The notes under the pieces were generated by a model that ran no database searches, was not told the DNA's origin, and worked only from the letters and a program-made list of their open reading frames with translations. A stretch of DNA of 64,000 nt from Owenia fusiformis (lineage: Eukaryota > Annelida > Polychaeta > Sabellida > Oweniidae): the NCBI GenBank assembly GCA_903813345.2, contig CAIIXF020000001.1:4526001-4590000 (forward strand). The letters are read 5' to 3'. Positions 1,991-49,383 of this stretch are shown here, piece after piece; within the stretch, counting starts at the first letter, position 1; each line of letters starts with the position of its first letter. Both the position numbers and the translations under genes were made by a program.

Positions 1991-4900
1991 TTAGTTGTAA
2001 TCAAGGTGGCGGGGACTCGCTGCTGTGCGTGACATGGTATGTGATAGACTTCTCATACTGTCTGCTAGTTTTTCAAACTCTTCCCATTTTCTACTGTGCA
2101 TTTCAGTTTCAGTTTCTTTCATTTTCTCTATGCTACCAACTTTATTCTCAAGTGTGAATATGTGGTTCCTTAGTCGTAAAATCTCTTGTTCCTTGTCTTG
2201 TACCTGCAATTTAAGTATAGAACTTACAATTTTAAGTTTTAGAACTATTGATTGAACTATCCCTATCAATTTACAAATCAAGGAACCCATTTACATTTTC
2301 CTTGAATTCTTGTGGCTTGCTCCACTGAATGAGATATTTGTGGAACTTGAAGAATAAATTAGAAATTTACAGATTTGTATATAACTTTTTAATTTAGTTG
2401 AGCTTTAGGTTTTGTTTTATTATCAATCAGTCATTTCATTTCATTATACTGCAAAATTTCAAATGAAGTGGACCCCTAAGGTATGATTATTCAGCTTAAA
2501 CTTATATTTCTTTAAAGCTTTAAATATCTTCAATAGATATTTTTATACCAACAAACAAAAGAGACCCCTAGTCCCTTTGTACAATTTCCCACCTGTTTTG
2601 TGAGCTCAGAGACATGGTCTACAAGGAGCATCTTATCTCTACGCAGTGAAGTGTTCTCACTCTCTGTCACTGAGTGTACGCCTTGCACCTCTGCTAGCCG
2701 TGACTGTGTACTGGACTGATTAAGTTGGATGCTACTGTTCAGTGACTCAGCCTTGGATAGCTGAAACAGGAATGTGACTTGTAAACAACTTATGCACAAC
2801 ACATGATAACTTGACATAACATGTCGGTTTCCCAGAGAAACATCTATTAAGTATCAGCTGAAAAGCACAGCCTGGTCCCCATTAGCCCAACACATAAATG
2901 TTTTTCCCTGACTTGTTCATGACGTGGCAGCCCTGTACAAAGTGTACATGTACTATCAAACTGATACCTAATGTAATGGACTAGATACAAGGAGAAATTA
3001 TCTGATTTTTAATATTCAATATTTAGTAGGGATGGGACGGTTCGTTTCTGTTCGGTTCGGTTTTTCGGATCATCAGCCGTCGGTTCGTTTTTTTGGTTCG
3101 GTTCATTCATTTTAAGGATTTGTATTGATTGACATGATTAGCTGCTTTGTCTCTGACTTCACTGCTGACTATTCACAATATTTTATAGATGGAATTTTAT
3201 GTTATAGTATTTCATGAACAATACATATTATTTAGAATACACGACTAAAGAATATAGTACCAGGGACCACATGATTGATTACCGAGGGATACGAATACGC
3301 GGATACGAAACAAATCTAGTAAACGAGTGAGCTAGCAACAGACAAGACAGACAAGGTAGGGACTAGGAATATCAAAAATGTTGCTGTAAAACAGTGTTTT
3401 TAACTGTTTTATTGATACTTGACCAATGAAATATTAATCCGAAAAGGATCCGAAAAGCTGATCCGAAAGTAGGGCTGTGATCCGAAAACCGATCCGAAGG
3501 CTATGAACCGCGGTTTTTCGGTATTTCGGTTATCCGTCCCACCCCTAATATTTAGTCAAAGTGGTGTAATTTTTGAAATCTTGACACATAAAATCATATC
3601 TAGAAATGTGGTTTTCAAAATCATTTATATCTACTTCGAAAAGTGAATTATCGTTTCTTTTCTTGTACTGGCCAGATAATGTTTTCTTTTACTGGACATA
3701 TTTTCAAATGTATAACTATCAGATACATACGGATAGTTATGAAAAGTGACCTAATAAAATTAGTGAATATTAAACTTTAGAGGAACTTTTCCCTATATCT
3801 GCCACCTAATCTGACCTAAATTAACTACATGATGGTGAAACTGGAAACTTACTACTGGCAGCTTGGTAAATGAACTAGAACTAACCTGTTCCATAAGGCT
3901 CCTGCATCTGTCTTGCTCTGATTGTAGTAAAGCTTTGGTCTGGTTCACCTCAAACTGAATTTGTTTTATCTTCTCATTGGCGTGTACTAATTCTGTGATA
4001 TTCTGTGATTTTCGCACATCTATGTTTTCTCGTAAACTTCTTTCCTAAAATCAAATAAGATACAATTTAGATTATCTTCCCTATATGTGAACTGAAATCT
4101 ATTTCATAACTTAATCATGCTATAGTGTCAGGTCATATACAGTACTTCACATGAACATAAAGTGCTTTAAAATTTGAATAAATTGAGTGTTTGATTTTGT
4201 AACAATTCTGTGCAATTTGTGTTAAGGACATGCCAAAACACTGACAGTCCTCTCATGGACACATACCCTCTCTACTTGGTTCCTGAGCTCAATGACCTGC
4301 TGGTTGAGTAACGAGTTCTCAGATACAAGATGGGAGCTGTCATCTGAGAGTTTTGTGCGGAGGTATCGATCTTGATCTGCCTTCATCTCAGTCTCTTTAA
4401 GTTTCTGTCTTAGCATCTGGACTTCCTCCTAATCATTTAAACAAAACTTAATGTCAACATACATTGATATATCATATATTTTTTTTTTAATCACATTGTT
4501 CAATGTTTTCCGCTGTTCGGCTTTTTATAAAACAACTTTGAAATCACAATACTACTATGACATAGCACTGTATTGTTTCTTACCCTAAGATCATTGACTG
4601 TCTTGTCATGCAATATAACATTGCTGCTGTAATATTTCTCCTCTAGTTCTCGTAGATTAGATTCTGTTCTCAACATGTCTGACCTCTTCTCCTCAAGAGC
4701 AAGCTGAGTTAACTTGTGCTGTTCAATCCTTTGGTCCAACTGAAAATATAATAATATCGTCGTGGTGAATAATGGAATATGTATTTATTACAAATACAAG
4801 AAATCGATTGAAATACATATGCTAGACTGTATATCGATAACTAAAAATGTTAAACCAATAATCATATATTTAGAAAAATAGCCTATTAAAATGCTCAAAC

Positions 4901-7900
4901 ATAATGCATTGTTGTAGTATTCTAATCATACAACTGGAAAGACTTCACAAGTTTAACTGGTACACTCTTTGCGAAACTGCTAAAGTTAACCTAAAATCAT
5001 GCAATAATTTGCTCCAATGGTACTTTTTTCACTATGCCATGTATTTTTCATTTATATAGAAAATGGTCAAATAAAAGTGGACAAGTCGTTTTTGAGACCA
5101 AGGTTTAAGTTTTATTTACAAAATTGTATTTAGTGGCAAATTGATTAACTTTTGATGTGTCATTTTACAATAGTGCCATGTTGTTCTGAAGTTAAAATCA
5201 GATTTGCCGTGGAAACAATGTATGTGCTGACGTTATATCCCTCAAAACATGAAATTTGGGATTTTTTTGGCCTTCATAAGTTGACCAGATACTGTGCATC
5301 CAATCGTAAAAGCACCAGCCTTGCTGTATACAAAGAATAACTTGATCAAACCTACCTGGCTTCTAAGAATTGAGATCTTGTGTTCTGCATTCCTCAAGGC
5401 TTGGGCAGATTTATCCATCTCACTACGAGCCTCTATCATCTGAGTATCTTTCCTTGAGTGTTCCGTCTCTAACATGGTCTTCTCCTTCTTCAGATTCACT
5501 AAATCTTCCATTAAGAGTCTTTTTTCACGGTTGTGTGCATCTATAATGGAATAGTTAAAAGAGTCAGCAACACCGTATATTCAACACCTAGCTTAGATCA
5601 TTCATTTGAAAAATAGGGGGGATTGTTTAAGCTGATATTTGATTGAAAAATCTTATGTACTTCATTTCTATTTACCAATCCAACATATTGTCAAAGTGCA
5701 GACAGTGACTACTGCAGTATTTGTTGCAAAGCTATCTCGGTGGGAATAACATAATTAGTGCTTAATGTATAATATTCAAAACCATACAGTAAAATTTGTA
5801 AAATGAAACACCTCTTTAGTAGAACACATCTGTAAGTGGAACACTTAAGTGAACACTGAAAGTGTTCAACACTACAGGTTTTACTGTATATTAGTTAAAG
5901 TACCTTCCTCTTCCCTGAGACGGTCAAGAGCACGACTCTTTTCAGTAGAGATTGAGTTAAGATTAGAATCCTTCCTTGCAACCTCAAGATGGAGACCATC
6001 GACCTGGGCCTGCATTTGCTACAAAGATATCAACGTATCATCAATAATTATGAATATGGCATGTTTGAGTGCATCGATATAAATGTATTAATGCAAATGT
6101 ATTCACTTGTGAATATCTGACCTAGATTCTAAAGCAAAAATCCATGGGAAAGTGGTTTAAACCAATGGAAATGAAAGTATGAAATCATCAATTTTCATCT
6201 GCACTAATAACATGTTTTTTTCTATATGTATTTTTTTCTAGCAGGAATGCAAATGAACTTTGTACATATACTGGTACATGCTCAACTTACTCTTAGTTTG
6301 CCAAGCATTCTCTCAGCTTCAGCAGACATCTGTGGATGCATATCTGTTGCCTTGCGAGCCTGCTCACGCGTACACATAGTTAAGGAGAAATTATACTTCC
6401 AAGTACTATAGTATCACATGATAAGGTCGCTTCGAAATGTTTAACACTGACTTCTGACTTTTTTTATCATAATATATCTAAATAATTTTTATATTAGTAA
6501 AACAAATTTAGTAATGGATTTATTTAATCTTATTTAGAAGCAGAATGCATAATACAAAATCAAATGGGTTAAACATAACATGCAGTAGGCATGTCAGTAA
6601 ACTTTTTTTGTGAACAGCCAAAACCCATGCACTAATTATACATATAAATCAAGCAAACATGTGGGATGTGGCCGATTCCAATGCTGAGAATAGAGGATAT
6701 AGATGGTTGGCCTCTAGCTCCAGGAAGTAGACCTGCTGTTGTAAGTTCTTGATGTACTCACTCTCCACATCTTTACTGATATCACCCATGCTGTAAGCAA
6801 ACATTGGAACATACAACCGCTAAGCATAAACTAGATAATATGGAGGTAAAGGAACATGTTTTTGAGAGAACCTTTGATATATTAACACACTGCGTCAAAT
6901 TGTAATAATATGTTTTGTAAATAATTTGAATGGAACAATAAGCAATAAAAATATAAGAAATATGTATTATGACCCCAGGGATTACTGCCCCGTTCTTGTT
7001 ATTTTTCCAGGGGGAACTGATTATAACTATTTTTATAATCAATCGGGTAAGTTTATAGTGGGAATGAGATAAATAGTCTCCAAATGATCATAGTTCTACA
7101 ATTTCATGTACAAGTTCTCTTTAAAACGTGTAACTTAAATTCTCTAATATGATATTATAAATGAACTGGTTGGTATGTCTCATAGCATACAACTCCTATG
7201 CTTTAATAAGTTGTTTAAGGGACCATTAGTCAATATTTCTCTTTTCTCTCAAAATATTATTAGCAAAATTTTCAGAGTGACCACCTCCCTCTCCCAAAAT
7301 ACAATTGAACATTTATTGAGTTTTTTCCAATGAAGAGTTGATTCATGTATGTTGAAATCTAATATCTTTTTTTAGCCTTTTCCCAAAATGGAATTAATTT
7401 ATTTTATGGGTGTAGATTGAGCACATATTGACATTGTCCCTAGCCAAGATCTCATTATAACATGCAATTAAAGAAACTGATTTTTCTACTTATCATTCTA
7501 ACATGAGAATGACCTTGGAATCAGGAAAGATTAGCACCCAGTAACCATTTATCATGCTTTTCAGTATAAGAACAGTTTCTCTAAGTTCTAAACAATAACA
7601 TAATGATGAAAATAAACAAAATAGTTCTCATACATTAAAAAATAAAATATGAAAATGTTATAAACATTAAAACCATAACCCATGCTTATACTACAGTATA
7701 TCTATAATCTCAGTGTTCTCCCTATGATTTCCTTCTCAACTGGATGCAAATCTTCTATTTTGCCCTTTCTGACTAAGAAATGTCTAGGATTCCAGTTTTG
7801 AAATTAGATTACTGAATATTTTTTTACACGAATTTTCATTAAGATTTTAACTGCAAGAATACTTAAAAATAAATCTTGCAGCAGGTTCAATGCTGGGGAG

Positions 7901-10900
7901 ATCACTGAGCTTTCATATACTTACAGTACTGTGAAAAGTGAGGGTTACTTATTCAAGGATATAAATATTTGGTCTCAAGTTCAAGGTAGTAAACCTGTTG
8001 TTGAAGGTTTCTGATGTAGTCAGCAGTCACTTTATCAAGGGACTGATCATTTATGCTGGATGGGGACTTGAGCCTAACACGAAAAGTTTAACATAGAAAA
8101 TAATCCATCATCAAAGAATTTTTAAATGAATATTGTAAATGAACTATCATTATGAATACTACCAATATTCATGTCAGTTGTCAAGGGAAATGTGCTTTGT
8201 AGTGTAGGTTTAGGAGTCACAAAACATAGGTGTTTTAGTATGTAAAGACACTTAATATATACTGTTGTTTACAACCAAATATTTTTGGCTTTAGTTCCCC
8301 AAAGATTCAATGAATCACGTCTCACCTGCCAAAGCTTGCTGCCAGGTTACCAGATTTCCTCAGATTCCCACTGCTGCCACTTCTCCTCAAAGACTGAGAG
8401 CCACTTAGATTGTAGCTGTCTGTAACGTAAATAAAATGACACTTATCAAAGTGGACCAATTAAAGTGAGAAGGGTGGAACAATGTTGATACATACCATAT
8501 ATGAATTTGTAAATTACATTAGTGTGACTATATATGAAAGTTTTTTGTTGCCCAAGTCACTACACTCAACCAACATACGCCTTTAACTTTTTTAAACTGC
8601 TATCATGTTTTGTGTGTATTTCTCTAAAAGATCAAGAATTAATTTAGACCTACAGTACACTGTATTTCTGTCAGAGGAATTGCCAAAGATGACTTATAGG
8701 ATGAGCCAGCAAACGTGAAGTACCTGAGGTACTGTACATGTATGGACTTGCTAATATACATATATCAGTGTTTTCAGTAGGTTCGTCCAAGATTGTGTCC
8801 CTGGGACGTAATGATTTTCAAAAAATGCGTCTTCCCTCATAAACTGCGTCCCTTGAAAAAATGCTCCCGGGAATTCAAAGTCACGTTTTTACACTAATCG
8901 AAATAAAATTGATGAAATTTTGTATCGATTTTGCTATTTATCTGTCTAAATCAGTGTCCTGGCGAGTCTAGTACGTCATTGAATGATACAGATACCATCA
9001 CTTTTGAGGTATAACTTATATTCAACCATTAGAAACACATTTTCTTTGCTTTAGTTTAGGGGCAATCTGCGCGAGGTTCAATTTTTTGGTTCAGTTTCTT
9101 GCGCATGCGCATTCTTAAATAATGATCTTGTGATTGCACTTGACCAATAGAAAATGGATTAAATCTGGTCCTCAGTTAACTATTTGACCTATCACATTCA
9201 CGAAATAAAGAGACTGAAGGTAAGTGGATTCACGAAGTGATTTACGAAATTCAAATTGCGTTCCAAAAACGTAATTATTTTTTTAATTTACGTCCACCCA
9301 ATCTTGATTTACGTCCTCTCCATTGAAGGACGCCGTTAATGAAACCTCTGATATATGTACTGATTACAGTATCTACAGTATAGCAGTATATGTACATCTT
9401 GCTGCTTTACTTATAATGATCAGTGTTTTTACATGTATTGTCATGTAGTCTTTAAAGTAGGCTTTGTGAGTTTGTGTACTGTAAAAAACTGGGTGACCGA
9501 CTGAGTACCTAACATTTCTACCAGGGTTCGGGAATTAGAGTTTTCCATTTTATGCCTCAGTAATGCCCAACTGACCTCCAACTCAACGTACCAGGCATAC
9601 AACCAATCAAGCAAACAACCAACAAAGCAACCAACTAATCTAACCAACTGACAAAACAAACATCGATATTCTGTCAATCACACAGGTAATAAATCTAACG
9701 TTGTATTGTACATCGTACATTAATTGACAGATAAAAATGCCAATGATGTTTCATTTTATGCATCCCTAATATGAAACCATTTTTTCTGATATTGATAAAG
9801 TGGCTCATTATTTTAAAAAGTGCTCTTACAGGTTCTTGGTAAAATGATAACGTTTATCTTTAGATATCGAACGGTAGTCTAAACTTGGGAGGCTACATGT
9901 ATGTCTATTTAGTAGGACCTACTCGACAGGTCAATTAGTGACTATATTAGGGGAGAATGTGCAACTTTGAAAGTTGGTAACCCTGCTAGGAACGCTAGGT
10001 ACCCGGTGACCTGGCTACCCGGTTACCCAGTTGCCCAGATTTTTACACAAACAAGTAGTAAAATATGTTATTTAATATTAGGTTTAGGTAGCATGAAGAG
10101 AGGCAAGCGTTATTAGTTAGGCCTATTACAATAATCATTGGACCACTGTCACCTGATTAGTACAACACGGTAAGCTGAAAGTGCATGTACACTGTACATA
10201 TACATATATGTTCAACTGTGCATATAGATGTACATACACTTCATGCATTGCAGTAAGGGCTTTCTAATATAACTTGGAAACCCTTTGATTGTGCATAACA
10301 TCTCTAATACCAGCAATTACCAATGATTATTAAAATGCATAGAGTAGATTCGAAGGATGTAGTAACACATACTACTACATGCATTACAAGCCAGCTGAGC
10401 AAATGGCTAGGATTTAATTAGATAGAAAGCATTTTGTAGATGATGCAGGCGCCAATTGTGCAACACTTTAAGGTCTCATGGAAGTTAACAGGAAATGACA
10501 AAACAAAAAATGACAAAGCCATGCTGGATTTTGAAAATTTTTGAACCAAGATAACAGAGTTCTGTTTGGACCTCCAGTCAGTTTAACTAGTTCCACATAT
10601 CATTTACATGACCGGGAACACAATTGAAATGGTCAGAATGACCATAAACATGATAAAATAACCTTTTCAGCCCTCTGAAAATGTGACTGAAAAATAGCTA
10701 AAAGTAGGTGCTCAGGAAAGGTCAATCAACAGAATCTTTTGATTTTTTCAGAAAATGTGTCCAATATATTGCTCTAAATGACACAATCTTTGAAATTTAA
10801 AAAAATTGTCTGAAACAATAATGGCTGTTGTAAAAAGGAAAATAGATCGATTTTCAATTCAGTTTTTTTAAATTTTTTCTTTTTCTAAGAATGATATCAA

Positions 10901-11405
10901 ATTTGTTTAAATTGTATCATTTAGAGCAATATATTGGGCACATTTTCTGAAAAAGTCAAAAGATTCTGTTCAGTGACCTTTCCTGAGCACAGACTCTTAG
11001 CTATTTTTTAGTCACATTTTCAGAGGGCTGAAAAGGTTATTCTATCATGTTTATGGTCATTCTGACCATTTCAATTGTGTTCCCGGTCATGTAAATGATA
11101 TGTGGAACTAGTTAAACTGACTGGAGGTCCAAACAGAACTCTGTTATCTTGGTTCAAAAAATTTTCAAAATCCAGCATGGCTTTGTCATTTTTTGTTTTG
11201 TCATTTCCTGTTAACTTCCATGAGACCTTAAGCTAACCAACATACCATGCAACCCTAACTAGCTACGAAACATTCACCAACCTCTTGCAGGTGAGTTTGC
11301 AGACATTCTGGGGGACCTCAGTGATTCTTTCCAATTCAAAACAGTTGTGGATTGATCACCAAGTGGCATTGAAATTTCTCTGGAGCGTGACCTGCTTCTA
11401 CTCAT
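1991..11405 (-). CDS. coiled-coil protein with mutually exclusive U12-spliced exons
   Basis: Eleven coding exons per transcript on the minus strand: 11282-11405 (ATG at 11405), 8326-8419, then either 7963-8073 or 6701-6790, then 6291-6369, 5904-6018, 5356-5540, 4584-4739, 4267-4428, 3886-4044, 2593-2760 and 1991-2203 (TAA). All phases join, giving 521 aa with the first alternative exon and 514 aa with the second. The N-terminus is Ser/Arg-rich and disordered (begins MSRSRSRSREIS). From about residue 85 to near the end it is almost all heptad-like coiled coil rich in E, K, L and Q. The tail is short and ends RHLDYN. There is no signal peptide, membrane segment or catalytic motif. I do not recognise the family; a centrosomal, ciliary or cytoskeletal scaffold is only a guess from the composition. 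The intron after the alternative exon is U12-type AT-AC; the others are ordinary GT-AG. The gene is head-to-head with VPS11. Confidence 0.8.
3027..3547. mobile_element. hAT-like MITE
   Basis: A 521-bp non-coding element between two copies of the 8-bp target duplication ATATTTAG (3019-3026 and 3548-3555). The ends are imperfect inverted repeats, beginning TAGGGATGGGACGG and ending CGTCCCACCCCTA, and the interior near each end repeats TTCGGTT-type motifs. An 8-bp duplication with TAGGG-type ends is characteristic of hAT elements. It sits in the intron between exons 2593-2760 and 3886-4044 and has no transposase. Confidence 0.75.
5785..5888. mobile_element. MITE-like repeat with TACAGTAAAA ends
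   Basis: A short element in the intron between exons 5540 and 5904, starting TACAGTAAAATTTGTA and ending ACAGGTTTTACTGTA, so the ends are inverted. The interior repeats AAGTGGAACAC-like motifs. Three other members occur in this window (26285-26464, 29027-29265, 40876-40982). No coding capacity and no clear target duplication. Confidence 0.5.
6370..6386 (-). other. U12-type branch point and AC acceptor
   Basis: On the minus strand TCCTTAAC (6379-6386) is a perfect match to the U12 branch-site consensus. The intron ends AC at 6371-6370, about 11 nt after the branch adenosine, as expected for U12 introns. There is no polypyrimidine tract. The exon that follows (6369 downwards) begins G CGT GAG CAG and restores the frame from either upstream alternative exon. 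The matching donors are at 7955-7962 and 6693-6700. Confidence 0.85.
6701..6790 (-). other. alternative coiled-coil exon, downstream version (90 nt)
   Basis: The downstream member of the pair. It has an ordinary acceptor (TTACAG) above 6790 and encodes a stretch containing YIKNLQQQVYFLELEANHL. It ends immediately before ATATCCTC, one base from the U12 AT-AC donor consensus. Its phase matches the upstream version at both ends. Seventeen of the last 22 codons or so encode the same or a similar residue, so this is a tandem exon duplication kept under coding constraint. Confidence 0.85.
7963..8073 (-). other. alternative coiled-coil exon, upstream version (111 nt)
   Basis: The upstream member of a homologous exon pair. 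A normal AG acceptor sits just above 8073. The exon begins in the phase required by exon 8326-8419 and encodes a stretch containing YIRNLQQQVYYLELETKYL. It ends immediately before ATATCCTT, an exact U12 AT-AC 5' splice site; reading on would hit a stop at once. Joined to the exon at 6369 the frame continues as LREQARKA. It aligns with the 6701-6790 exon over its last 20-odd codons and differs in its first part. Both lengths are multiples of three. Confidence 0.85.
8768..9350. mobile_element. probable TIR element, non-autonomous
   Basis: The left end reads TCAGTGTTTTCAGTAGG; the right end in reverse complement reads TCAGAGGTTTCATTAAC, an imperfect terminal inverted repeat. Inside each end are related motifs built on ACGTCC and CCAAGATTG in opposite orientation. 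The flanks are AT-rich, so the target duplication is ambiguous. It lies in the first intron of the coiled-coil gene and encodes nothing recognisable. The superfamily is uncertain, perhaps hAT. Confidence 0.4.
10468..11232. repeat. long palindrome (two ~325-bp arms) in intron 1
   Basis: Arm 10468-10795 is repeated in inverted orientation at 10910-11232 with only scattered differences, around a spacer of roughly 115 bp. The whole lies in intron 1 of the coiled-coil gene, close to its start exon. Transcribed from either strand it would fold into a very long hairpin. There is no protein frame and no clear target duplication, so it may be a foldback transposon or a local inverted duplication. Confidence 0.85.
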
Positions 11406-12023
11406 GCTTGTTATTCAATATTATCAAGATGTGTATTCAGTTGAGGTAGCTAGCTCAAAAATCGACGTGTTAGAAAGTAATTTCAGGATTCACACAGATA
11501 ATTCCAAGCTTGGTCTTAGGCTTTGGATATAGTCTAAGTTTAGAGCTAGAGTAGAATTTGGATGCAGGCTAAAAATTTAGCAAAAAACAAAAAGTTATTT
11601 TCAGGAACGTGGCAACGGTTTGTGGGCATATCAAAGTATCAAATCTAATGCCAGGTGATTCAAAATAGATTACGAACCTCCAAATGACTTCTGAGAAGAC
11701 TTTTTCCCAGATGTTTTCCCAAATGTCGATGAAATTCTGGACATATTGTGGAAAATGTCTCACTTTTTAAGAGGACGCGTAGAGATAGGCAACCAAAAAA
11801 CTAAATCTCGAATGCAAAACAAGTGCACGAGAACCTGCGAGAGTTGAATTAAATACCAATTTTCGCCTTATTTACAAATATATGTTTCATCAAAATTTCC
11901 TGAGTGTATCTGTGTATATTGATGATTGTTCAAAAGTCTCTAAGATTATTGAATCACGTCCAGTATCATTAAAATACCCAAGGTTATGAACAGCGCATAT
12001 GACCTTGACCTACAAAATCCAAG
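11406..12023. promoter_or_regulatory. divergent spacer, likely bidirectional promoter
   Basis: This 618-bp interval separates the start codon of the coiled-coil gene (minus) from that of VPS11 (plus). It must hold at least part of both 5' UTRs, and the simplest reading is a shared promoter. No TATA box or other element stands out and no transcription start can be placed. It contains none of the repeats seen in neighbouring introns. Confidence 0.45.
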
Positions 12024-24000: not shown

Positions 24001-27000
24001 GATTATTAGACTCCAGATGTTAGACTCCAGATGAAATCTGGAGTCTATTGTTTTCGTCAGTTTTCTTATTCTTATTCTTATTATTCTTTTTCTAAACCAG
24101 TTTTCTCAATAACCATACGGTCTTCAGTAAAGTCAATCATTTGGTCAATTTAGGTCCAGTATCTAGTTCCTCGCAAATTGGGTCAAATTTTTATATAGGT
24201 CAAAGGTCAAGAACTAGGTCAAATCCAGTACTTTGTCACTTTTTTCGATTTACTCGGTCGTCCTTCAATATTTTCGATCCGGGCTTTTTTCATTGTGTTC
24301 CTCATAAAAAAGTAGGAAATTTAGGGTGATTTAGTTTTTTGATATCTCAAACCGATTTCGAGATATCAGTGTCTGAAAACGAGGTCCAAAAAAAGCTCTC
24401 CGAATTAAATGTCTAGGATATCAGTCTTATAGGATATTTTCTCAGAATTCCGAATCTGAAAACCAAATTCGAATCAGACTTCCGGTTCGGAAGTTATGGC
24501 GTTTTGAAAGCTCAAAAATCGCTAAAGGACGATTCTCGGCTTGGAGAACAAAGTTCATCAATCTAAATGAGCATTATCCCTGCTTCGGACAAATTTGATT
24601 TTTTTACATAATATAGATTTGAATGTCTTCTTTTGAATAGTCATAATTTAATTTGGGTGATATTTCTAGATATTTTGCAAAAAAATATAAGCGCGGTACA
24701 CTGATGAACTTCTTTTCCAAAATCGAGACTTGTAATTTATTGAATCGGTCTAATTGAGCGTTATCCCTGCTTCAGACCAATTTGTTATTTTTACATCTTG
24801 TAGATTTAAATGTCCTCTTTTGAATATTCATAGTTTAATTTGGGTAATATTTCTATATTTTTCATGAAAAAAATTATTAGCCCAGGAGACTGTTCTCCAA
24901 ACCGAGAATCGTCCTTTGGTGCCCATGTTAAGTCAATGGGAAAAAAGATTTATTTGAAGTGAAAAATACGAAATATAGACTGCGTTCAGCTAAATATAAT
25001 GAAAGCTTTTAAAAGAATGGGACCTCAAAAGCCATCTAGCTTCAAAATTTGGACACCAAAATGCCTAGGTCAAAATCTAGGTCAAATTCAATGTTTTTCC
25101 TTATTTTTGCTATTCTGACACTACAGATTAATTATATTCTTCGAAATTTTGTATACATGTAGCCAAGAGTGCGCTTATAGTGTTAGCCTTTTGCCGTCAG
25201 AAAGTATTTTGCCCCATTTTTGAGATACGGTGTCCGAAAAGTAGGTCAAAATAAAAAATTCTCCAAATTTAACGTATGAGTTATGAATTAGGGGTAGAAT
25301 TTTGTCAGGAATCCGAATCTGCAAATCAAATTTCCATCTGACTATATTTTATATTCTATCCTATCCTTCCTTCCTTTTTAATCCATCCATCCATCCATCC
25401 ATCCATCCATCCATCTTTTGCTGGATGACTTAGCTTATTTTGGATGACTTGGCTTATTCTGGATGACTCGGCTAAAAAAAGTCTAGATCTGGAGTCTGAA
25501 ATTGAACTTGTTCAATTTCCAAAATCTAGTTATTATTTACTAGCATGACTTTGATATATGAAAACATACTAAACGAAGACATAAACTTTAATTGAATATG
25601 ATGAAATGCTGAGTATGCATGACATTGGCTTATAATTCAAGCTACAGTGATATTCAATTAAAGGATATCATGTCAAGTAAATGAAAAAACTTCAAACAAG
25701 GCAATTTATTTCAACAGGATATTTTATATGAGGATTATTATCCCACTGATCATAGTTCGGATATACAGTATATAGAAAAGCCCTCCATCCGTCCATCCAT
25801 TTGTGTGTCCGTCCGAAAAGCCCTCCATCCGTCCATCCATTTGTGTGTCCGTCCGAAAAGCCTTCCATCCGTCCATCCATTTGTGTGTCCGTCCATCAGT
25901 CTGCTCAATAACTTTAATGCCATTTCACAGATTTGGTTCAAATTCTATATGCTGATGCTTTATGGCCAAATGACTTGCTTGAGAAGGGATTTTGAATATG
26001 GTGGCTTAAATCGAAATGATACTATATCCATGGTTGTGTATAATTTCAGTTATCAACAGATCCTGAGGTACCATATGGAACACAATGAGTACACACACAT
26101 CATAGAGTCTTGCAAACGCTTTGGGTAAGTGAAGTTGTATTTAAAAATGATCTCTCTATCAGTGCTCTCTATTATTGTAGCAACTAGTTTATGCACAAAC
26201 TTGAATTCATGTACAATAAAACAAAATATAACAAAAAATTAACTGATCCCAAGCTACAGTAGCAGTGTGCCCTTAAGACAGACATACAGTGAAACCTGTA
26301 GATCTGAACACATCTCTTTGTGAACACTTTTTTCTTGGTCCCAAATTTTGTATCTCTCATTGACCCACAAATTTAAAAAGCTTGTTTTTAAAAATGTGAA
26401 CACCTACTAATCTGCACACTTTTGGCTAGCTCCAGTGTTGTTTGGATTAGACAGGTTTTACTGTACATAAAACTACCTTGCAATAAACTGAAAATCGGTT
26501 TGCCCCTGTCTTTTGACAATTTCAATGTGCATAAATAATTTGGATATTTTATGCCAAAATACATGACTCATGAATCATGACTCACTTTAAAGGATCGTGT
26601 TTATATAACTAACTAACTAACTAACTAACCAACCAACCAACCAACCAACCAACCAACCAACCAACCAACCAACCAACCAACCAACCAACCAACCAACCAA
26701 CCAACCAACCAACCAACCAACCAACCAACCAACCAACCAACCAACCAACCAACCAACCAACCAACCAACTAACTAACATACATGTAGTTGATTAATATCT
26801 ATGTCATATATTAGATGGTAATCTGATCCTGGTGTTAAAATGATGGAGTAATTCAATTATAGAGTGTCTGAGATTATATATGTCAGTTTGAATATACAAT
26901 GTATTTTATATTTGTATATTTTTGTTGCAGTACTGCTGATCCTCATCTTTGGGTGCAAGCATTATCTTACTTTGCCCGTAAGCAGGAGAACTGCAAGCCA

Positions 27001-29436
27001 CAAATAATGGAAGTGTTGTCACATATAGATAAGAAGAACCTACTACCACCTCTTCTGGTCATACAAACCTTGGCACATAATTCCACAGCTACCCTGGCTG
27101 TGGTGAAGGTACAATAAACTTAGATACTTAAGTACATGTGTTACTATTGTAATATAGAATCAACAAGATATAAGACATACTTACTATTTTGAAGTACCCC
27201 ACAATCCTCTGAACACAAAGAACCTAAGTCTAAATTGAAATGTGTACATCTGAGCTGATATAATATTCAGATGTTTGATTGTCATACCACAAAATTCTTC
27301 AAATTCATAATAATAGGTTGAGCATAAACTCTTTTACCGTTGATATTATATTTCAGGACTATATCATCCGACGACTCCAAGTAGAGAGCGATCAGATAGC
27401 TGAGGATGAGAGACTTATCAAACAGTATAAGGAAGAGACAGAAAAGACTCGTAAACAGATTGAGGAGCTAAAAACAAGGTGAGAAAAAAATTTTGGTCAA
27501 ATAAATTTTCACTTAAAAGTTATTATAAAGTGTTTGCTTTAAGTTATGTTTTTTGTGTAAGGCCTGTTTATACTTGTACAAGTTTTAAGTGCATCAAATT
27601 TAATGCCAGTTATAACTCAACCTGACATGACACAAATCCTTTACACCTCTTGTATCTCTACCCAAATCAATTGGATACCTGAATTGAAAGTGTACAACTG
27701 TATATTTAGACTGTATAATTACATTTCAGTGCAAAGATATTCCAAGTGTCAAAGTGCAGTGTATGTAACCATCCATTGGAGCTGCCCTCAGTTCATTTCC
27801 TCTGTCAGCATTCCTATAAGGTTTCATTGTAGGGTTGTAGTATATGTTAGACTGTATAATTACATTTCAGTGCAAAGATATTCCAAGTGTCAAAGTGCAG
27901 TGTATGTAACCATCCATTGGAGCTGCCCTCAGTTCATTTCCTCTGTCAGCATTCCTATAAGGTTTCATTGTAGGGTTGTAGTATATGTTAGACTGTATAA
28001 TTACATTTCAGTGCAAAGATATTCCAAGTGTCAAAGTGCAGTGTGTGCAACCATCCATTGGAGCTGCCCTCAGTTCATTTCCTCTGTCAGCATTCCTACC
28101 ACCAACAGTAAGTCATTCCAAAATAAAGAAATAATCACTCTTTCAGATTCTGAAGTTTATTCCACCTATTATATTCATTCTATGGCATTGACTTCCTTTT
28201 TGCATTAGAATTTTATATGTTAATAACGTGAATAATCACTGATTCAAAATTTGATGCTGACTTTAGTACAAAAGTTGGCATCATTGTTTCATCATTATAG
28301 TCTCTTAGGATAACTATAAGGAGTCTGACAAATGACATGTTTTTTTTTCTATTTTTCAGTTGTTTTGAAAGTTATGCTGAGAATGACTCTGAATGTCCTG
28401 CATGTATGCCAGAGAATAGGTAGGTTGTTTGTTTGTTTGTTGTTTGTTTGAGTATTGTTTGTTTGATCAGCTGGTTACTTTTTTGTGGCATGGTAGATAG
28501 CTTTCTCAACTTTCTCAACCAATAATTGCCACAAATGTTCAAAATAATCAATCAATTTTAACCTATTAACCCTTAGTTCATGTATATCGACATTAAACTT
28601 TCATCTCCATGTACATGTTCATGATTTTATTGCAGAAAATTACTAGACATAATCCGTGCTCAGGAGCAGAGTAAAGACCTCCATGAACAGTTCCATCATC
28701 AGTTAGAGCGTGCCTCGGATGGTTTCTCTGTTGTGGCTGACTACTTTGGTAGAGGAGTCTTCAATAAGGTTAGGATCATGTCTAGTCTTGCTTCAAGACC
28801 GTTGGCCTGGGTCTCTATCTAAACAACACAGTTGTAAGAGTAGATAGTCCTGGGTTAAGCGAGATTAAATCATGTCCAGATGTGTCTTTGCATTATTTAA
28901 TTCCAAAAGCCCCAAAATTGGATATTTTAATTGTATTGCAGCTTCCAACTTAGTGTTACCCTGATGAAAAATAGTTTAGCTTAATTTCTTATATTTCTCA
29001 ATTATTTGTAGAATTTACTGTTCAAGTACAGTAAAACCTGTATATCTGAATACTCTTGTGGCTTTCTTGTAATCTGAACTTTTCTCAATCTGAACATTTC
29101 CTTGGTTTCGTTGACTTACATACTAAGAACACTGAACACATCTTCTGGCCCCAATTTTGTTTTCTCTCACTGACTTACATACTAAGAAACCATCAAATGT
29201 GAACACCTGCTTATCTGAACACTTGGCTGGTCCCAGTAGTGCTCAAATTAGACAGGTTTTACTGGACATATGATTCATGTGTATCATAAATTGGTATTTT
29301 TTCTTGAATGTACTTCCAGGTGACACTTATTACTGACCCACCTGGTAAGGGCAGGACGTCTGAGAGTCTCATAGACAATAGTTTACAGAGAGATCTACTA
29401 TTAGCGCAACAATCTTTGAATCCGTTTGATGAATAA
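12024..29436 (+). CDS. VPS11: VPS11, HOPS/CORVET core subunit with RING-H2
   Basis: Twenty-six coding exons: 12024-12038, 12387-12461, 12868-13041, 13364-13414, 13647-13715, 14130-14227, 14431-14668, 14995-15128, 15288-15429, 15679-15758, 16053-16206, 16639-16785, 18046-18237, 18579-18684, 19822-19851, 20676-20776, 20993-21076, 21384-21434, 21629-21717, 26050-26124, 26931-27108, 27357-27478, 28012-28107, 28360-28419, 28636-28768, 29320-29436. All phases join, giving 936 aa (human about 941). The start MAFLQWRRF matches animal VPS11. Order: N-terminal beta-propeller (about 1-350), clathrin-heavy-chain-type alpha-solenoid (about 350-760), coiled coil (762-801), and a RING-H2 with C811, C814, C827, H829, H832, C835, C846 and C849, then [11 protein letters not shown]. 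Known role: VPS11 anchors the class C core tethering endosomes and lysosomes. The coding part of exon 1 is only five codons, so the start rests on protein similarity and splice fit. Introns carry several transposons. Confidence 0.95.
16398..16440 (+). mobile_element. head fragment of the GTCACC hairpin family
   Basis: A 43-bp piece matching the start of longer copies at 42252, 47662 and (reversed) 61845: a short perfect hairpin built on GTCACCACC and GTGGTGAC followed by ATATTGTTAT. It sits in VPS11 intron 11, directly before the decoy exon starts described below. Confidence 0.6.
16433..16600 (+). other. decoy acceptor and partial copies of VPS11 exon 12
   Basis: Intron 11 carries extra copies of the acceptor TTTGTTTCAG at about 16436-16445 and 16547-16556. 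The second is followed by TTTCTAGATACCCAAAGGAT, a near copy of the true exon 12 start at 16639 (TTTCTAGATGCCCAGAGAAT). Only the first 25 to 30 coding bases are copied, and no donor follows. This looks like local tandem duplication across the intron-exon boundary. Use of the decoy would break the protein. Confidence 0.65.
16886..17836. mobile_element. repeat element with GGCTCACACAGTG ends in VPS11 intron 12
   Basis: The left end reads TGGCTCACACAGTGAGCC. The right end contains ACACTGTGTGAG and closes with GTGGCTCC. It has a GTCC-rich microsatellite near the left end and an interior with repeated TTGACCTT and AAATCTGAC motifs, also found in the GTCACC-family elements, so the two families may share internal repeats. 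A truncated relative lies at about 29970-30060. No coding capacity. Confidence 0.5.
19502..19637 (+). mobile_element. short copy of the GTCACC hairpin family
   Basis: A compact member in VPS11 intron 14. It starts ATGTCACCACCACAATTGG and ends CATGTTAATGCCTTAT, matching both ends of the long copies but lacking the internal tandem array. Retained ends show that the family is defined by its termini and that the array is expendable. Confidence 0.6.
22756..22841 (-). pseudogene. isolated VWC-like exon, antisense in VPS11 intron 19
   Basis: The minus strand reads [20 protein letters not shown] followed by PICM, the half-domain spacing of von Willebrand factor type C modules (C, C, then G, then CCPxC). 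A plausible acceptor precedes it (AG just above 22841) and a donor GTATGA follows below 22756. No other exon of such a gene was found nearby. It could be a stray exon carried by a repeat, the relic of an inserted gene, or one exon of a nested minus-strand gene. Confidence 0.4.
24008..25508. mobile_element. element with AGACTCCAGAT ends in VPS11 intron 19
   Basis: Starts with AGACTCCAGAT (in two copies) and ends ATCTGGAGTCT, giving inverted termini about 1.5 kb apart. Inside, a segment of about 140 bp around GTTATCCCTGCTTC is duplicated in tandem (about 24565-24700 and 24755-24890). A reading flanked by AAAGGACGATTCTCGG recurs inverted at 24900-24920. An ATCC microsatellite (25381-25415) lies near the right end. 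No transposase frame. Confidence 0.5.
25776..25895 (+). repeat. 40-bp minisatellite, three copies
   Basis: Three head-to-tail 40-bp units, each starting AAAAGCCCTCCATCCGTCC, with one or two differences between units. They lie in VPS11 intron 19, about 150 bp before exon 20. The open frames on both strands here come only from the repeat. Confidence 0.9.
26285..26464. mobile_element. MITE-like repeat with TACAGTGAAACCTGTA ends
   Basis: Starts TACAGTGAAACCTGTA and ends ACAGGTTTTACTGTAC, inverted ends of the same family as 5785, 29027 and 40876. The interior has repeated TCTGAACAC-like words. It lies in VPS11 intron 20 and encodes nothing. Confidence 0.5.
26606..26777 (+). repeat. CCAA tetranucleotide microsatellite (~170 bp)
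   Basis: An almost uninterrupted run of CCAA units, with AACT-type variants at both edges, in VPS11 intron 20. Variant edges around a pure core are typical of slippage expansion. Confidence 0.95.
27709..28107 (+). repeat. tandem triplication of the VPS11 RING exon
   Basis: A 141-bp unit containing an acceptor, the RING exon and intron sequence occurs with exon starts at 27730, 27871 and 28012. Copies 1 and 2 look identical. Copy 3 differs at the start of the Cys pair codons and at the 3' edge, where it alone has the residues YHQ and a donor in the right phase (CA then GTAAGT). Copies 1 and 2 run instead into TATAAGGTTTCATTGTAG. Splicing to copy 1 or 2 would bring an early stop, so they are at best poison exons. 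Confidence 0.85.
28424..28465 (+). repeat. GTTT-type microsatellite next to a VPS11 donor
   Basis: About ten imperfect GTTT units directly after the exon 24 donor (28420). It is a simple repeat in the intron with no further structure. Confidence 0.8.
29027..29265. mobile_element. MITE-like repeat with TACAGTAAAACCTG ends
   Basis: Starts TACAGTAAAACCTGTA and ends ACAGGTTTTACTGG. It lies in the last VPS11 intron, just before exon 26. Inside, a segment containing TTGACTTACATACTAAGAA is repeated. Same family as 5785, 26285 and 40876. Confidence 0.5.
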
Positions 29437-44777: not shown

Positions 44778-45386
44778 AAATCTAATTTCTATATGATTAG
44801 GCCTACTGTTTACTGTTATGGGTAAACCTTTCCTTGCTGATTTTCTATATTATGGTTTTCAAAAGGATTAAATTTCAAAATTGTCTTCTTTGTTTAAATG
44901 TCCTATCTGTGTACTTATTAATTGATTAAAACGATTATTTGAATGAAAGATATTGCTTAGCTATGAATCTTTTATTTTTTAATAAATGTGGTGATGTTGA
45001 AATGAACTGAGAAACTGTAGCCGATAATTAAAAACATATATTTTGCACACATTTGGAGCAAAGATTTGAGGGAGAAAAATGTTTGGTAGAAAAATGCCAA
45101 GTGCTACAGAAAAAGGTATATAGATGTAAACTGAAATATTCTCTCAAGACTGATTTCATATCGGAAGATTTTCCTTGGATTAAATCAGCTGCTAGTAAAT
45201 GTGCTCATTTTGAATGGAATTAAATGATTGTGATAAACTTCCTTTCAAGGTTCTTTTTGAAGGTGTTATATTTCAATAAAATTATACTGTACTATTGTGG
45301 TTATTATTCTAAGATTTTATTTTTGTAAGATTAGTGTCAGTGTTAAATAATTAATGATTTGTTAAAATTTGTACATTTTATTTCAG

Positions 45387-46290
45387 CGTTTTTCACTGTT
45401 TTTGTTGTTGCCAGCATCTTCTATGTGCTCTATGCTGTCATGATGGTACGTCGCTGGGAATTCACATTTCCTGTGGATTACACCTCAATAACCAATTGCT
45501 CACGATGTGGATGCACAGCAATGAAGAAGCAGCATTACATCATTTTGGCAATTCCTCGGAGTGGTTCAACTATGCTTAATGATATTATATGTCAGCATCC
45601 AGATATTGGATGCACTGACGAACCTCTACATATTGAAGAGTTGCTGCCAAGGGGCCTTATGGGAGCCTCCTCAGATAATGTAATGCAATACCTGCTACAA
45701 TCGGTTCATAAACTGGATTGTAATAAAGTTTATGGGTTCAAAGTTTTCACAGACCATTTATACGAGGCTAATATACCACTCAAAGATTTGATCAGGATAT
45801 TGAATAAACCTAAAATTATTTTACTTACAGAAAAAATATATTGGAGTCATTTGTTTCATTAAAAATCAGTCTAAGGACAAAAATTTGGAATATTCACTTG
45901 GATAGCCTGAAAAAAATTCCTCTCCCAACACCTCAAAATGTCACCCTCGCTTTGGACGAATATGTTTACTGGACAAGTAAAATTGAAAAGCGCTGGAAGG
46001 GGCCTCTTAAGGAGTTTGATACATACCCCAATAATATGAAAACCATGGTGACATATACGGACATAACTGAAAACAGGGATGTTATTATACCAAAACTTGT
46101 AGAGTTTTTAGGGTTCAAACCACAGTATTTTAGTCCAATGAATATTAAATTGAATCCAGCGCCGCTGGAAGATAAAATTGCAAATTATGGGGAGTTCATG
46201 GCTCAGTTAGAGAAACACAATGTTTCAATGTATCTAGATGTAGCACAAATGCTTCGATCAATTCATAAAACAAATGCTCGGAAACATTGA
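45387..46290 (+). pseudogene. Stf0-like sulfotransferase, frameshifted tandem copy
   Basis: Nearly identical to the intact copy at 48442. It retains the membrane anchor, the 5'-PAPS loop (IPRSGSTML) and the C-terminal part. At about 45826-45832 it has CTTACAGAAAA where the intact copy has CTTTATAGAAAA. That one-base loss shifts the frame inside the 3'-phosphate-binding region, so translation ends at 45862; the remainder lies in another frame to 46290. It also lacks the in-frame ATG upstream of the TTTCAG at 45381-45386. Either this is a young pseudogene or the shift is a sequencing error. Outside the shift the differences are modest, so decay is recent. AATAAA at 46604 could have been its polyadenylation signal. 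Confidence 0.8.
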
Positions 46291-47661: not shown

Positions 47662-48397
47662 TATGTCACCACCAAAAAGTGGTGACATATTGTTATGGTA
47701 TCCGTTTTTTTGACGGAGGTTGGTGGATGGTGATCGGCATCTGTAACAAATTCTTATTTGAACTTTTGATTAAAATTGAACTTCTAATCCAATTTCTTTT
47801 AAAATCATCTACATGTTTTAAAATGTTCAAATCTGACTTTATATTTAAGATTTGACCTTCAATGACCTTTTCAAAGTCAAAAAGGTCTTTTTTCAACTTG
47901 CTTCAAATTGACCAATTTTTTTACAAAATTATCTACAAGTTATCAGAAGTTCAAATCTGACTAGATTTGAGATTTGACCTCAACAAAAAGGGCCTTTTTT
48001 TAACTTGCTTCAAATTGACCATTTTTTCAAAATCATCTACAAGTTCTCAGGTTCTCAACGGTTCAAATCTGACTATAAATTTGACCTTAAATGACATTCT
48101 TAAGGTCAAAAAAGATTTGACCTTCAATGACATTCTCACGGTCAAAAAGGTCTTTTTTCATCTTGCTTCAAATTGACCAATTTTTTTTGAAAATCATCTA
48201 CAAGTTCTTGGAAGTTCAAATCTGACTTTGGATTCGAGATTCGAGGGTCAAAAAGGTATTTTTCAACTTGCTTCAAATTGACCAATTTATTTTTTCAAAA
48301 TCATCTACAAGTTCTCAGAAATTCTAATCTGACTAAGATTGAACTCATAATATTGTGAGCAACAAGGTGGTGACATTTTGTCATGTTAATGCCTTGT
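47662..48397 (+). mobile_element. GTCACC hairpin-family element, about 735 bp
   Basis: Starts ATGTCACCACCAAAAAGTGG and ends GTCATGTTAATGCCTTGT, with five or so internal units holding TTCAAATTGACCA and AAATCTGAC. It ends about 45 bp before the start codon of the intact sulfotransferase and has no counterpart at that position in the broken copy, so it inserted after the tandem duplication. It may now sit in the promoter or 5' UTR. Confidence 0.75.
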
Positions 48398-48441
48398 ATT
48401 TTTCTAAAAGAGCGACGCTATTACATTTTAAAATTATATTA

Positions 48442-49383
48442 ATGATTCGTTATAGGTTCATACATTTTATTTCAGCGTTTTTCACTGTGTTTGTTGTTGC
48501 AAGCATTTTATATGCACTTTATGATGTCATGATGGTACGTCGCTGGGAATTCACATTTCCTGTGGATTACACCTCAATAACTAATTGCTCACGATGTGGA
48601 TGCATAGCAATGAAGAAGCAGCATTACATCATATTGGCAACGCCTCGGAGTGGATCAACCATGCTCAACTACATTCTATGTCAGCATCCAGATATCGGTT
48701 GCACTAATGAACCACTGCATAATAAGTTAGAGTTGCTGCCAAGGGACCTTGTTGGAGACTCCTTGGATAATATAATGCGATACCTGTTACGATCGGTTCA
48801 TAAACTGGATTGTAATAAAGTTTACGGGTTCAAAGTTTTCACAGACCATTTATACGAGGCTAATATACCATTAAAAGATTTGATCAGGATATTGAATAAA
48901 CCTAAAATTATTTTACTTTATAGAAAAAATATCTTGGAATCATTTGTTTCAATGAAAATCAGTCAAAGGACACAAATTTGGAATATTCACTTGGACGGCC
49001 CAAGAAGAAATCTACATCTACCGCCTCAAAATGTCACGCTTACTTGGGGTGGGTATGCTCTATGGAGAAGTAAAATTGAAAAGCGCTGGATAGAGCCTCT
49101 TAAGGAGTTTAATACATACCCCAATAATATGAAAACCATGGTGACATATACAGACCTAACTGAAAACAGGGATGTTGTTATACCAAAACTTGTTAAGTTT
49201 TTAGGGTTCAAACCACAGTATTTTAGTCCAATGAATATTAAATTGAATCCAGAGTCGCTTGAAGATAAAATTGCAAATTATGGGGAGTTCATGGCTCAGT
49301 TAGAGAAACACAATGTTTCAATGTATCTAGATGTAGCACAAATGCTTCGATCAATTCATAAAACAAATGCTTCAAAACATTGA
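48442..49383 (+). CDS. Stf0/NodH-like sulfotransferase, type II membrane protein
   Basis: An open frame of 313 codons from the ATG at 48442 to TGA. Residues about 9-27 form a hydrophobic anchor after a short basic cytosolic end, as in Golgi sulfotransferases. PRSGST at 68-73 is the 5'-phosphosulfate loop for PAPS. YRKNILESFVSMKISQRTQI from residue 160 is the 3'-phosphate region and resembles bacterial Stf0. The end (FLGFKPQYF, ANYGEF, YLD) is family-typical. An NCS glycosylation sequon follows the anchor. Substrate unknown. TTTATTTCAG ends at 48475, so an upstream exon could replace the first 11 codons; the frame is open through it, so the start is uncertain. It is the intact partner of 45387-46290, in a tandem duplication with flanks (about 44900-46600 and 47300-50000). 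AATAAA at 50039 may end the transcript. Confidence 0.8.
   Translation: MIRYRFIHFISAFFTVFVVASILYALYDVMMVRRWEFTFPVDYTSITNCSRCGCIAMKKQHYIILATPRSGSTMLNYILCQHPDIGCTNEPLHNKLELLPRDLVGDSLDNIMRYLLRSVHKLDCNKVYGFKVFTDHLYEANIPLKDLIRILNKPKIILLYRKNILESFVSMKISQRTQIWNIHLDGPRRNLHLPPQNVTLTWGGYALWRSKIEKRWIEPLKEFNTYPNNMKTMVTYTDLTENRDVVIPKLVKFLGFKPQYFSPMNIKLNPESLEDKIANYGEFMAQLEKHNVSMYLDVAQMLRSIHKTNASKH

What the first reader, a model, noticed from the sequence alone, without database searches (positions are those of the whole stretch)
6291..8419. Mutually exclusive exons enforced by U2/U12 spliceosome incompatibility
Two homologous, same-phase exons (7963-8073 and 6701-6790) both have ordinary AG acceptors, so the upstream U2 donor below 8326 can join either one. 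Both end in U12 AT-AC donors (ATATCCTT and ATATCCTC), and the only U12 acceptor, with a perfect TCCTTAAC branch site and AC end, lies at 6370-6386. Exon-to-exon joining would need a U12 donor with a U2 acceptor, which is not expected to work. Skipping both would also mix types. Every transcript must therefore use exactly one exon. U2/U12 incompatibility has been proposed for JNK exons; a duplicated U12 AT-AC donor pair is rare. The swapped segment is a coiled-coil stretch, so partner choice could change.
Basis: partly seen in the sequence, partly recalled or inferred. Interest (0 to 1): 0.85.

Follow-up and report, generated by a model that had tools for sequence, protein, structure and literature searches.

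The report
Either-or exons between two splicing machines
In the marine worm Owenia fusiformis, the most conserved exon of a little-known coiled-coil protein gene has been duplicated between one ordinary intron and one ancient rare-class (U12, AT-AC) intron, so the cell should be able to use only one copy at a time; this looks like a clean new case of a trick known from a few other genes.

Summary
The window is Owenia fusiformis; the gene encodes an uncharacterised metazoan coiled-coil protein (minus strand). Exon A (8073-7963) and exon B (6790-6701) are homologous, same phase, both with AG acceptors and U12 AT donors (ATATCCTT, ATATCCTC); of the gene's acceptors only E3's is U12-like (TCCTTAAC, AC). 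The annotated Owenia protein equals the model with B joined to E3 across the AT-AC intron. That intron looks ancient: 63 of 107 short ORFs matching the exon, and a Branchiostoma and a Nematostella gene model, read through the donor as L-Y-P. U12 and U6atac genes are in the genome. Exon A keeps protein sequence while synonymous sites diverge (22-codon core dN 0.25, dS 1.69). Frame and intron length cannot enforce exclusivity, so U2/U12 incompatibility is the best explanation. Limits: no transcript or protein with exon A was found, nor the pair in a second species; 'every transcript must use exactly one' is too strong, since of eight U2-only bypass joins tried six stop early but two stay in frame. 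The mechanism is known (JNK, TMEM87A/B; 5 of 629 human clusters): a new member of a known kind.

The parts
11282..11405 (-). E1, possible first coding exon (124 nt), donor GTTGGT
   Evidence: ORF with ATG, phase fits E2; not in the annotated protein, which uses another first exon
11678..11744 (-). Alternative first coding exon used by annotated protein P0011, donor GTTCGT
   Evidence: with it the model equals P0011 letter for letter
8326..8419 (-). E2, shared upstream exon (94 nt); U2 donor GTGAGA from 8325
7963..8073 (-). Exon A (111 nt), duplicated exon, AG acceptor
   Evidence: no transcript evidence found
7955..7962 (-). U12 AT donor of exon A, ATATCCTT
6701..6790 (-). Exon B (90 nt), ancestral-like copy, AG acceptor
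   Evidence: in annotated Owenia protein P0011
6693..6700 (-). U12 AT donor of exon B, ATATCCTC
6379..6386 (-). U12 branch site TCCTTAAC, branch A 10 nt from the intron end
6370..6371 (-). AC end of the shared U12 intron
6291..6369 (-). E3 (79 nt), shared downstream exon, U2 donor GTAAGT
5904..6018 (-). E4
5356..5540 (-). E5
4584..4739 (-). E6
4267..4428 (-). E7
3886..4044 (-). E8
2593..2760 (-). E9
1991..2203 (-). E10 with stop codon
7919..7924 (-). Possible leak: U2-type GTAAGT downstream of exon A (use would include the stop after L-Y-P)

Best explanation
The gene inherited an old U12-type AT-AC intron right after its most conserved exon, with an ordinary U2 intron before it. In the Owenia lineage that exon was duplicated in tandem. 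Each copy therefore has a U2 acceptor in front and a U12 AT donor behind. The major spliceosome joins E2 to A or to B; the minor spliceosome joins the AT donor of the chosen exon to the single U12 acceptor of E3. A cannot be joined to B (U12 donor, U2 acceptor) and E2 cannot be joined to E3 (U2 donor, U12 AC acceptor), so normal mRNAs carry one copy. Most failed products stop early (intron kept after A: stop right after L-Y-P). Shown: the sites, the B-E3 junction in the annotation, U12 and U6atac genes. Well supported by sequence comparison: the age of the AT-AC intron and selection on the protein of A versus B. Inferred: that A is used, that A-B joins are absent, that the duplication arose in this lineage, and what selects A or B.
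For: Exact sites. Annotated Owenia protein P0011 equals E1alt-E2-B-E3-...-E10 letter for letter, so joins B to E3 at the AT-AC intron; that annotation was built with RNA-seq through STAR, Portcullis, Mikado and PASA, 99.29% of transcripts being RNA-seq supported (PMC9977687, passages). L-Y-P read-through in 63 of 107 short ORFs and in a Branchiostoma and a Nematostella model. U6atac twice at 100 bits, U12 at 128 and 126 bits. A versus B, 22-codon core: 8.5 of 12.7 synonymous and 11.5 of 53.3 nonsynonymous sites differ (all 31 aligned codons: dS 1.12, dN 0.37); 32 of 20,000 neutral simulations of the core keep as much protein without a stop. A+B joined and both skipped are in frame and the A-B intron is 1172 nt, so frame and spacing do not enforce the choice. 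U2 and U12 sites are generally incompatible, and JNK and TMEM87 use this (PMC3584512, PMC8329584, passages).
Against: No protein with exon A was found in three protein searches (lengths limited to about 0.55-1.75 times the query, proteins clustered at 90%), although the database holds the Owenia annotation; P0011 is the only member of its cluster. No A-like second exon was recognised in another species. Exon A departs from residues conserved in all or nearly all of 42 homologs (E63T, N82K, F76Y, E65D). U2-only bypasses exist, two of eight tried being in frame. Annelids vary: Helobdella and Dimorphilus have lost most minor introns (PMC10639083, passages). No RNA reads could be examined.
Confidence: 0.75

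Rival explanations
1. Exon A is a rarely used or dying copy: B is the constitutive exon and A is at most noise or a poison exon whose stalled products (intron kept after A, stop right after L-Y-P) lower expression.
For: Only B is in the annotated protein; B is nearer to homologs (mean 17.6 of 21 core residues against 15.0 for A over the 224 of 231 proteins that could be scored); A lost a Glu present in 42 of 42 aligned proteins.
Against: A keeps an open frame, an AG acceptor and a full ATATCCTT donor although the surrounding introns no longer align convincingly (one 67-nt stretch, nearly all within the exons, aligns at E 4e-11; the other pieces are 9-16 nt with E 0.02 or worse); its core differences from B are largely synonymous or conservative.
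Confidence: 0.17
2. The exons are alternative but exclusivity comes from competing RNA structures or protein regulators, with splice-site incompatibility only a backstop.
For: JNK exon choice is itself steered by Nova in neurons (PMC8329584, passages); some regulator must choose A or B here too. One perfect 11-nt inverted pair links the last 11 nt of exon A (7963-7973) to the intron before it (8274-8284).
Against: 7 short inverted repeats of 11-15 nt in 6291-8419, none seen as a shared docking site with two selectors; perfect 11-nt pairs number 2, against a mean of 1.6 in 200 shuffles, 78 of which reach 2. One sequence cannot test covariation.
Confidence: 0.06
3. A and B are not exclusive: the minor spliceosome, or a hybrid reaction, can join the AT donor of A to the AG acceptor of B, giving a longer, in-frame isoform (551 aa).
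For: A+B is in frame; hybrid use of sites cannot be excluded from sequence alone.
Against: B's acceptor has no branch-site match above 6 of 9 in the 45 nt before it; AT-AG combinations are described as disfavoured (PMC3584512, passages); joining would double the most conserved helix start.
Confidence: 0.02

Closest known systems
MAPK8/MAPK9 (JNK) alternative exons 6a/6b (7a/7b)
   Same: Two alternative exons with competing U2-type 3' splice sites before and U12-type 5' splice sites behind (PMC3584512, PMC8329584, passages)
   Different: Different gene and phylum, so presumably an independent duplication; both isoforms and tissue regulation are shown for JNK and not here; whether the JNK donors are AT-AC was not established from the passages seen
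TMEM87A/TMEM87B exons 11/11a
   Same: Tmem87b exons 11 and 11a, both 72 bp, the second inside a minor intron; no reads joined 11 to 11a, and the minor spliceosome is needed for the intron after 11a (PMC6717393, passages)
   Different: Mammalian genes with RNA-seq and RT-PCR evidence
Human mutually exclusive clusters with U2/U12 incompatibility
   Same: Same principle; 5 cases, 0.79% of 629 clusters (PMC5740500, passages)
   Different: Human; the genes are not named in the passages seen
Staggered major/minor sites in other genes
   Same: A 2019 paper cites Letunic 2002, Chang 2007 and Janice 2013 for mutually exclusive exon choice by spliceosome choice (PMC6865273, passages)
   Different: The three cited papers were not read (Chang 2007 is not held), so further invertebrate cases may be in them
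prospero twintron (Drosophila)
   Same: U2 and U12 sites compete within one gene
   Different: Overlapping introns, not duplicated exons (PMC3584512, passages)

Membership tests
Mutually exclusive exons by U2/U12 incompatibility (JNK type) | Two tandem homologous exons of the same phase | tested here: met
   59% identity over 32 aligned columns; both multiples of 3
Mutually exclusive exons by U2/U12 incompatibility (JNK type) | Upstream U2 donor and U2-type acceptors before both exons | tested here: met
   E2 CAG|GTGAGA; both acceptors end in AG; before B no branch match above 6/9; before A an 8/9 match lies 37 nt from the intron end, outside the 8-21 nt range used here
Mutually exclusive exons by U2/U12 incompatibility (JNK type) | U12 donor behind both exons | tested here: met
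   8 of 9 matches to ATATCCTTT for both
Mutually exclusive exons by U2/U12 incompatibility (JNK type) | One shared downstream U12 acceptor with branch site | tested here: met
   TCCTTAAC, branch A 10 nt from AC; B-E3 junction in the annotation
Mutually exclusive exons by U2/U12 incompatibility (JNK type) | Minor spliceosome present in the organism | tested here: met
   U6atac and U12 found; U11 and U4atac searches did not complete; minor-spliceosome proteins not searched
Mutually exclusive exons by U2/U12 incompatibility (JNK type) | Both isoforms expressed | tested here: inconclusive
   B in annotation; A in no protein found
Mutually exclusive exons by U2/U12 incompatibility (JNK type) | No transcripts with both exons | not testable with these tools
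   No RNA reads available
Mutually exclusive exons by steric hindrance | Inter-exon intron too short to splice (donor to branch under 50 bp, PMC5740500) | tested here: not met
   A-B intron 1172 nt
Mutually exclusive exons by frameshift and NMD | Joint inclusion breaks the frame | tested here: not met
   A+B and double skip are in frame
Competing RNA structures (docker/selector) | One docking site complementary to a selector near each exon | tested here: inconclusive
   7 short inverted repeats, no such arrangement seen, perfect 11-mers no more than chance; no related DNA for covariation

The most novel reading that the evidence does not exclude
An exon between a U2 and a U12 intron is preadapted: any tandem duplication of it is born mutually exclusive with no regulator evolved first. 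Owenia shows this as an independent event in an old AT-AC setting, on the most conserved segment of the protein, where joining both copies or dropping both would stay in frame and probably do harm. If so, U12 introns would be seeds of either-or splicing, and duplicated exons should be enriched next to them across animals.
Probability: 0.4. Interest if true: 0.65.

Novelty: new member of a known kind. Interest (0 to 1): 0.47.

Why it matters
It appears to be an independent, invertebrate example of exon choice enforced by the division of labour between two spliceosomes, in a setting where the usual alternatives (frame, spacing) fail. By the read-through evidence the AT-AC intron predates the split of cnidarians and bilaterians, so the locus shows how one duplication next to an old minor intron can create an either-or switch. 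Owenia has staged and tissue RNA-seq (PMC9977687, passages), so junction counts can test it directly.

Tried and rejected
Pfam on the partial protein: 7 families at E 0.0075 or worse, all below their cut-offs; Pfam on five family members: none at E 0.001. PDB by sequence with the 126-residue stretch: none. Rfam on the window: none. Competing RNA structures: 7 short inverted repeats, perfect 11-mers at chance level. Third exon copy: none in the window; exon A DNA matches once in the genome. The genome protein search found B, E3 and E4 but missed exon A itself, so it is no test for further single-exon copies. A-type exon elsewhere: 10 of 224 scored proteins are as close or closer to A than to B over 21 core residues, most of them sharing T81 or R68 with A (P0190 and P0199 also the double Y), but none is known to be a second exon of one gene. 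The profile contained L-Y-P, so 63 of 107 leans towards that signature. The 22-codon core was chosen by me as the well-aligned part, and the simulation takes B as ancestor. Change of coiled-coil partner: not supported beyond one core A-to-T. Chang et al. 2007 is not held.
Full report
What is there. The window is from the annelid Owenia fusiformis: protein P0011, an 'unnamed protein product' of that species, matches the gene at 100%, and its contig length equals that of contig C1 of the window's own assembly. The gene lies on the minus strand. I modelled E1 11405-11282, E2 8419-8326, exon A 8073-7963, exon B 6790-6701, E3 6369-6291 and E4 to E10 down to 1991. With another first exon (11744-11678) in place of E1, the B version of the model equals P0011 letter for letter. 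The protein is an uncharacterised coiled-coil protein: 116 proteins matched residues 40-340 at E 0.001 or better among 4826 candidates, from sponges, cnidarians, molluscs, nemerteans, a brachiopod, echinoderms, amphioxus, tunicates, a lungfish and reptiles, with many unrelated names such as paramyosin or ELKS. Pfam gives nothing at E 0.001 for five members.

Checking the sites. Exon A ends at TTT|ATATCCTTG and exon B at TCT|ATATCCTCT; both match 8 of 9 positions of ATATCCTTT and 2 of 6 of GTRAGT, while the nine other donors scored are GT donors with 1 to 4 of 9. ATATCCT occurs 18 times in 128,000 positions. The E3 acceptor is CTCCTTAACTATGTGTAC, branch A 10 nt from the end. Of 11 acceptors scored, E3 alone ends in AC and alone has an 8 of 9 branch match within 8-21 nt; exon A has an 8 of 9 match (TTCTTTGAT) 37 nt away, and E4 a 7 of 9 match at 11 nt. 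Consensus strings are recalled; the usual branch distance of 11-13 nt is from PMC6717393 (passages).

Is the AT-AC intron real? Three lines. First, the annotated protein joins B to E3 exactly there, and the annotation was built from RNA-seq by STAR, StringTie, Portcullis, Trinity/GMAP, Mikado, Augustus and PASA, with spliced Capitella protein alignments as further hints (PMC9977687, passages); I did not see the reads. Second, an AT donor read through by a gene finder gives the residues L-Y-P. In a search with a four-row exon profile, 63 of 107 short ORFs read L-Y-P just there; of the other 44, 22 read L-R-E-Q, 10 another L-R, and 12 something else or could not be scored. L-R means the intron is absent or already spliced. 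Some of the 63 match named species closely over the exon, for example Porites (P0151, 100% over 37 of 39 residues) and Ostrea (P0186, 100% over 26 of 26). A Branchiostoma floridae model (P0089) and a Nematostella one (P0124) show the same read-through. The profile contained L-Y-P, which favours such hits. So the AT-AC intron most likely dates to before the cnidarian-bilaterian split. Third, the genome holds U6atac (two copies, 100 bits; both with AAGGAGAGA) and U12 (128 and 126 bits; sequences printed). U11 and U4atac searches did not complete.

Is exon A real? Its DNA matches once in the 498-Mb genome. A and B align over one 67-nt stretch at 77.6%, nearly all inside the exons; the introns around do not align convincingly. 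In the 22-codon core dS is 1.69 and dN 0.25, over all 31 aligned codons 1.12 and 0.37 (Nei-Gojobori, my script); of 20,000 neutral simulations of the core 32 kept as many amino acids without a stop, and 61% gained a stop. In a 42-member alignment the five most conserved 22-residue windows start at residues 63-67, that is, on the exon core and the first residues of E3; mean top-residue frequency is 0.92 for residues 63-84, 0.71 for E3 and 0.51 for the rest. Against this, A has T where all 42 have E, and K where N is at 98%. B is the ancestral-like copy. No A isoform was found among proteins. Use of A is therefore likely but unproven.

Why exclusive? A, B, A+B and neither all keep the frame, and the A-B intron is 1172 nt, so neither decay of frameshifted RNA nor crowding explains a choice. 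What remains is that A-B and E2-E3 would each mix a U12 with a U2 site. Reviews state that the two types are generally incompatible and describe JNK and TMEM87A/B as such cases (PMC3584512, PMC8329584, PMC6717393, PMC6071210, passages). Leaks exist: E2 to E4, GTAAGT at 7924, and GT sites within the exons. Of eight such joins tried six stop early; A cut at 7994 and B cut at 6732, each at CAG|GT and joined to E4, stay in frame. Those two donors are weak (5 of 9, against 6 to 8 for the nine used). A Capitella model (P0080) shows the same join, either a predictor's way round an AT-AC intron or a true minor isoform. E2 joined to the first four AGs inside E3 stops early in all four cases, and keeping the intron after A stops right after L-Y-P.

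What the swap changes. The AlphaFold model of P0011 (mean pLDDT 78.7, pTM 0.28) has a helix from 62 to 289; exon B encodes 54-84, so the exon supplies the end of the low-confidence lead-in and the start of the helix. The isoform with A was not modelled. The heptad core is I L V L A L in B and I L V L T L in A. The lead-in differs more and in A holds a KSPSS stretch. A change of partner is a guess.

Known or new. In humans 5 cases, 0.79% of 629 clusters, are of this kind (PMC5740500, passages). Seven literature searches gave listings in which I saw no report of an annelid case or of this protein family; passages of ten of the listed papers were read, no paper in full. Letunic 2002, Chang 2007 and Janice 2013, cited there for this mechanism, were not seen. 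It is a new member of a known kind.

Noticed in passing
11744-11678 and 11405-11282: Two alternative first coding exons ending in the same phase; the two Haliotis rubra isoforms (P0017, P0018) also differ in length and before the shared part.
   Followed up: partly
6732 (exon B) and 7994 (exon A) to E4 at 6018: CAG|GT inside the conserved QQQV codons could give a U2-only, in-frame join to E4 that skips the U12 intron; Capitella model P0080 shows the same join.
   Followed up: partly
P0001, P0003-P0009, P0191, P0193-P0196: ORFs that run through L-REQ towards the next GT donor: lineages that seem to lack the AT-AC intron; several resemble the bryozoan Watersipora (P0077) by eye.
   Followed up: no
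P0188: Reads ANYL-VCEC, as if a GT donor had replaced the AT donor in that lineage.
   Followed up: no
45347-46290 and 48343-49383: Similar sulfotransferase-like open frames in tandem on the plus strand, the first one split in two frames (named by eye, no family search).
   Followed up: no
59425-59838: HSP70-like open frame on the minus strand (named by eye).
   Followed up: no
26607-26777, 27700-28098, 60800-61705: Tandem repeats: (AACC)n over 171 nt, a 141-nt unit in 2.8 copies at 98%, and an array with units of 136, 148 or 284 nt.
   Followed up: no
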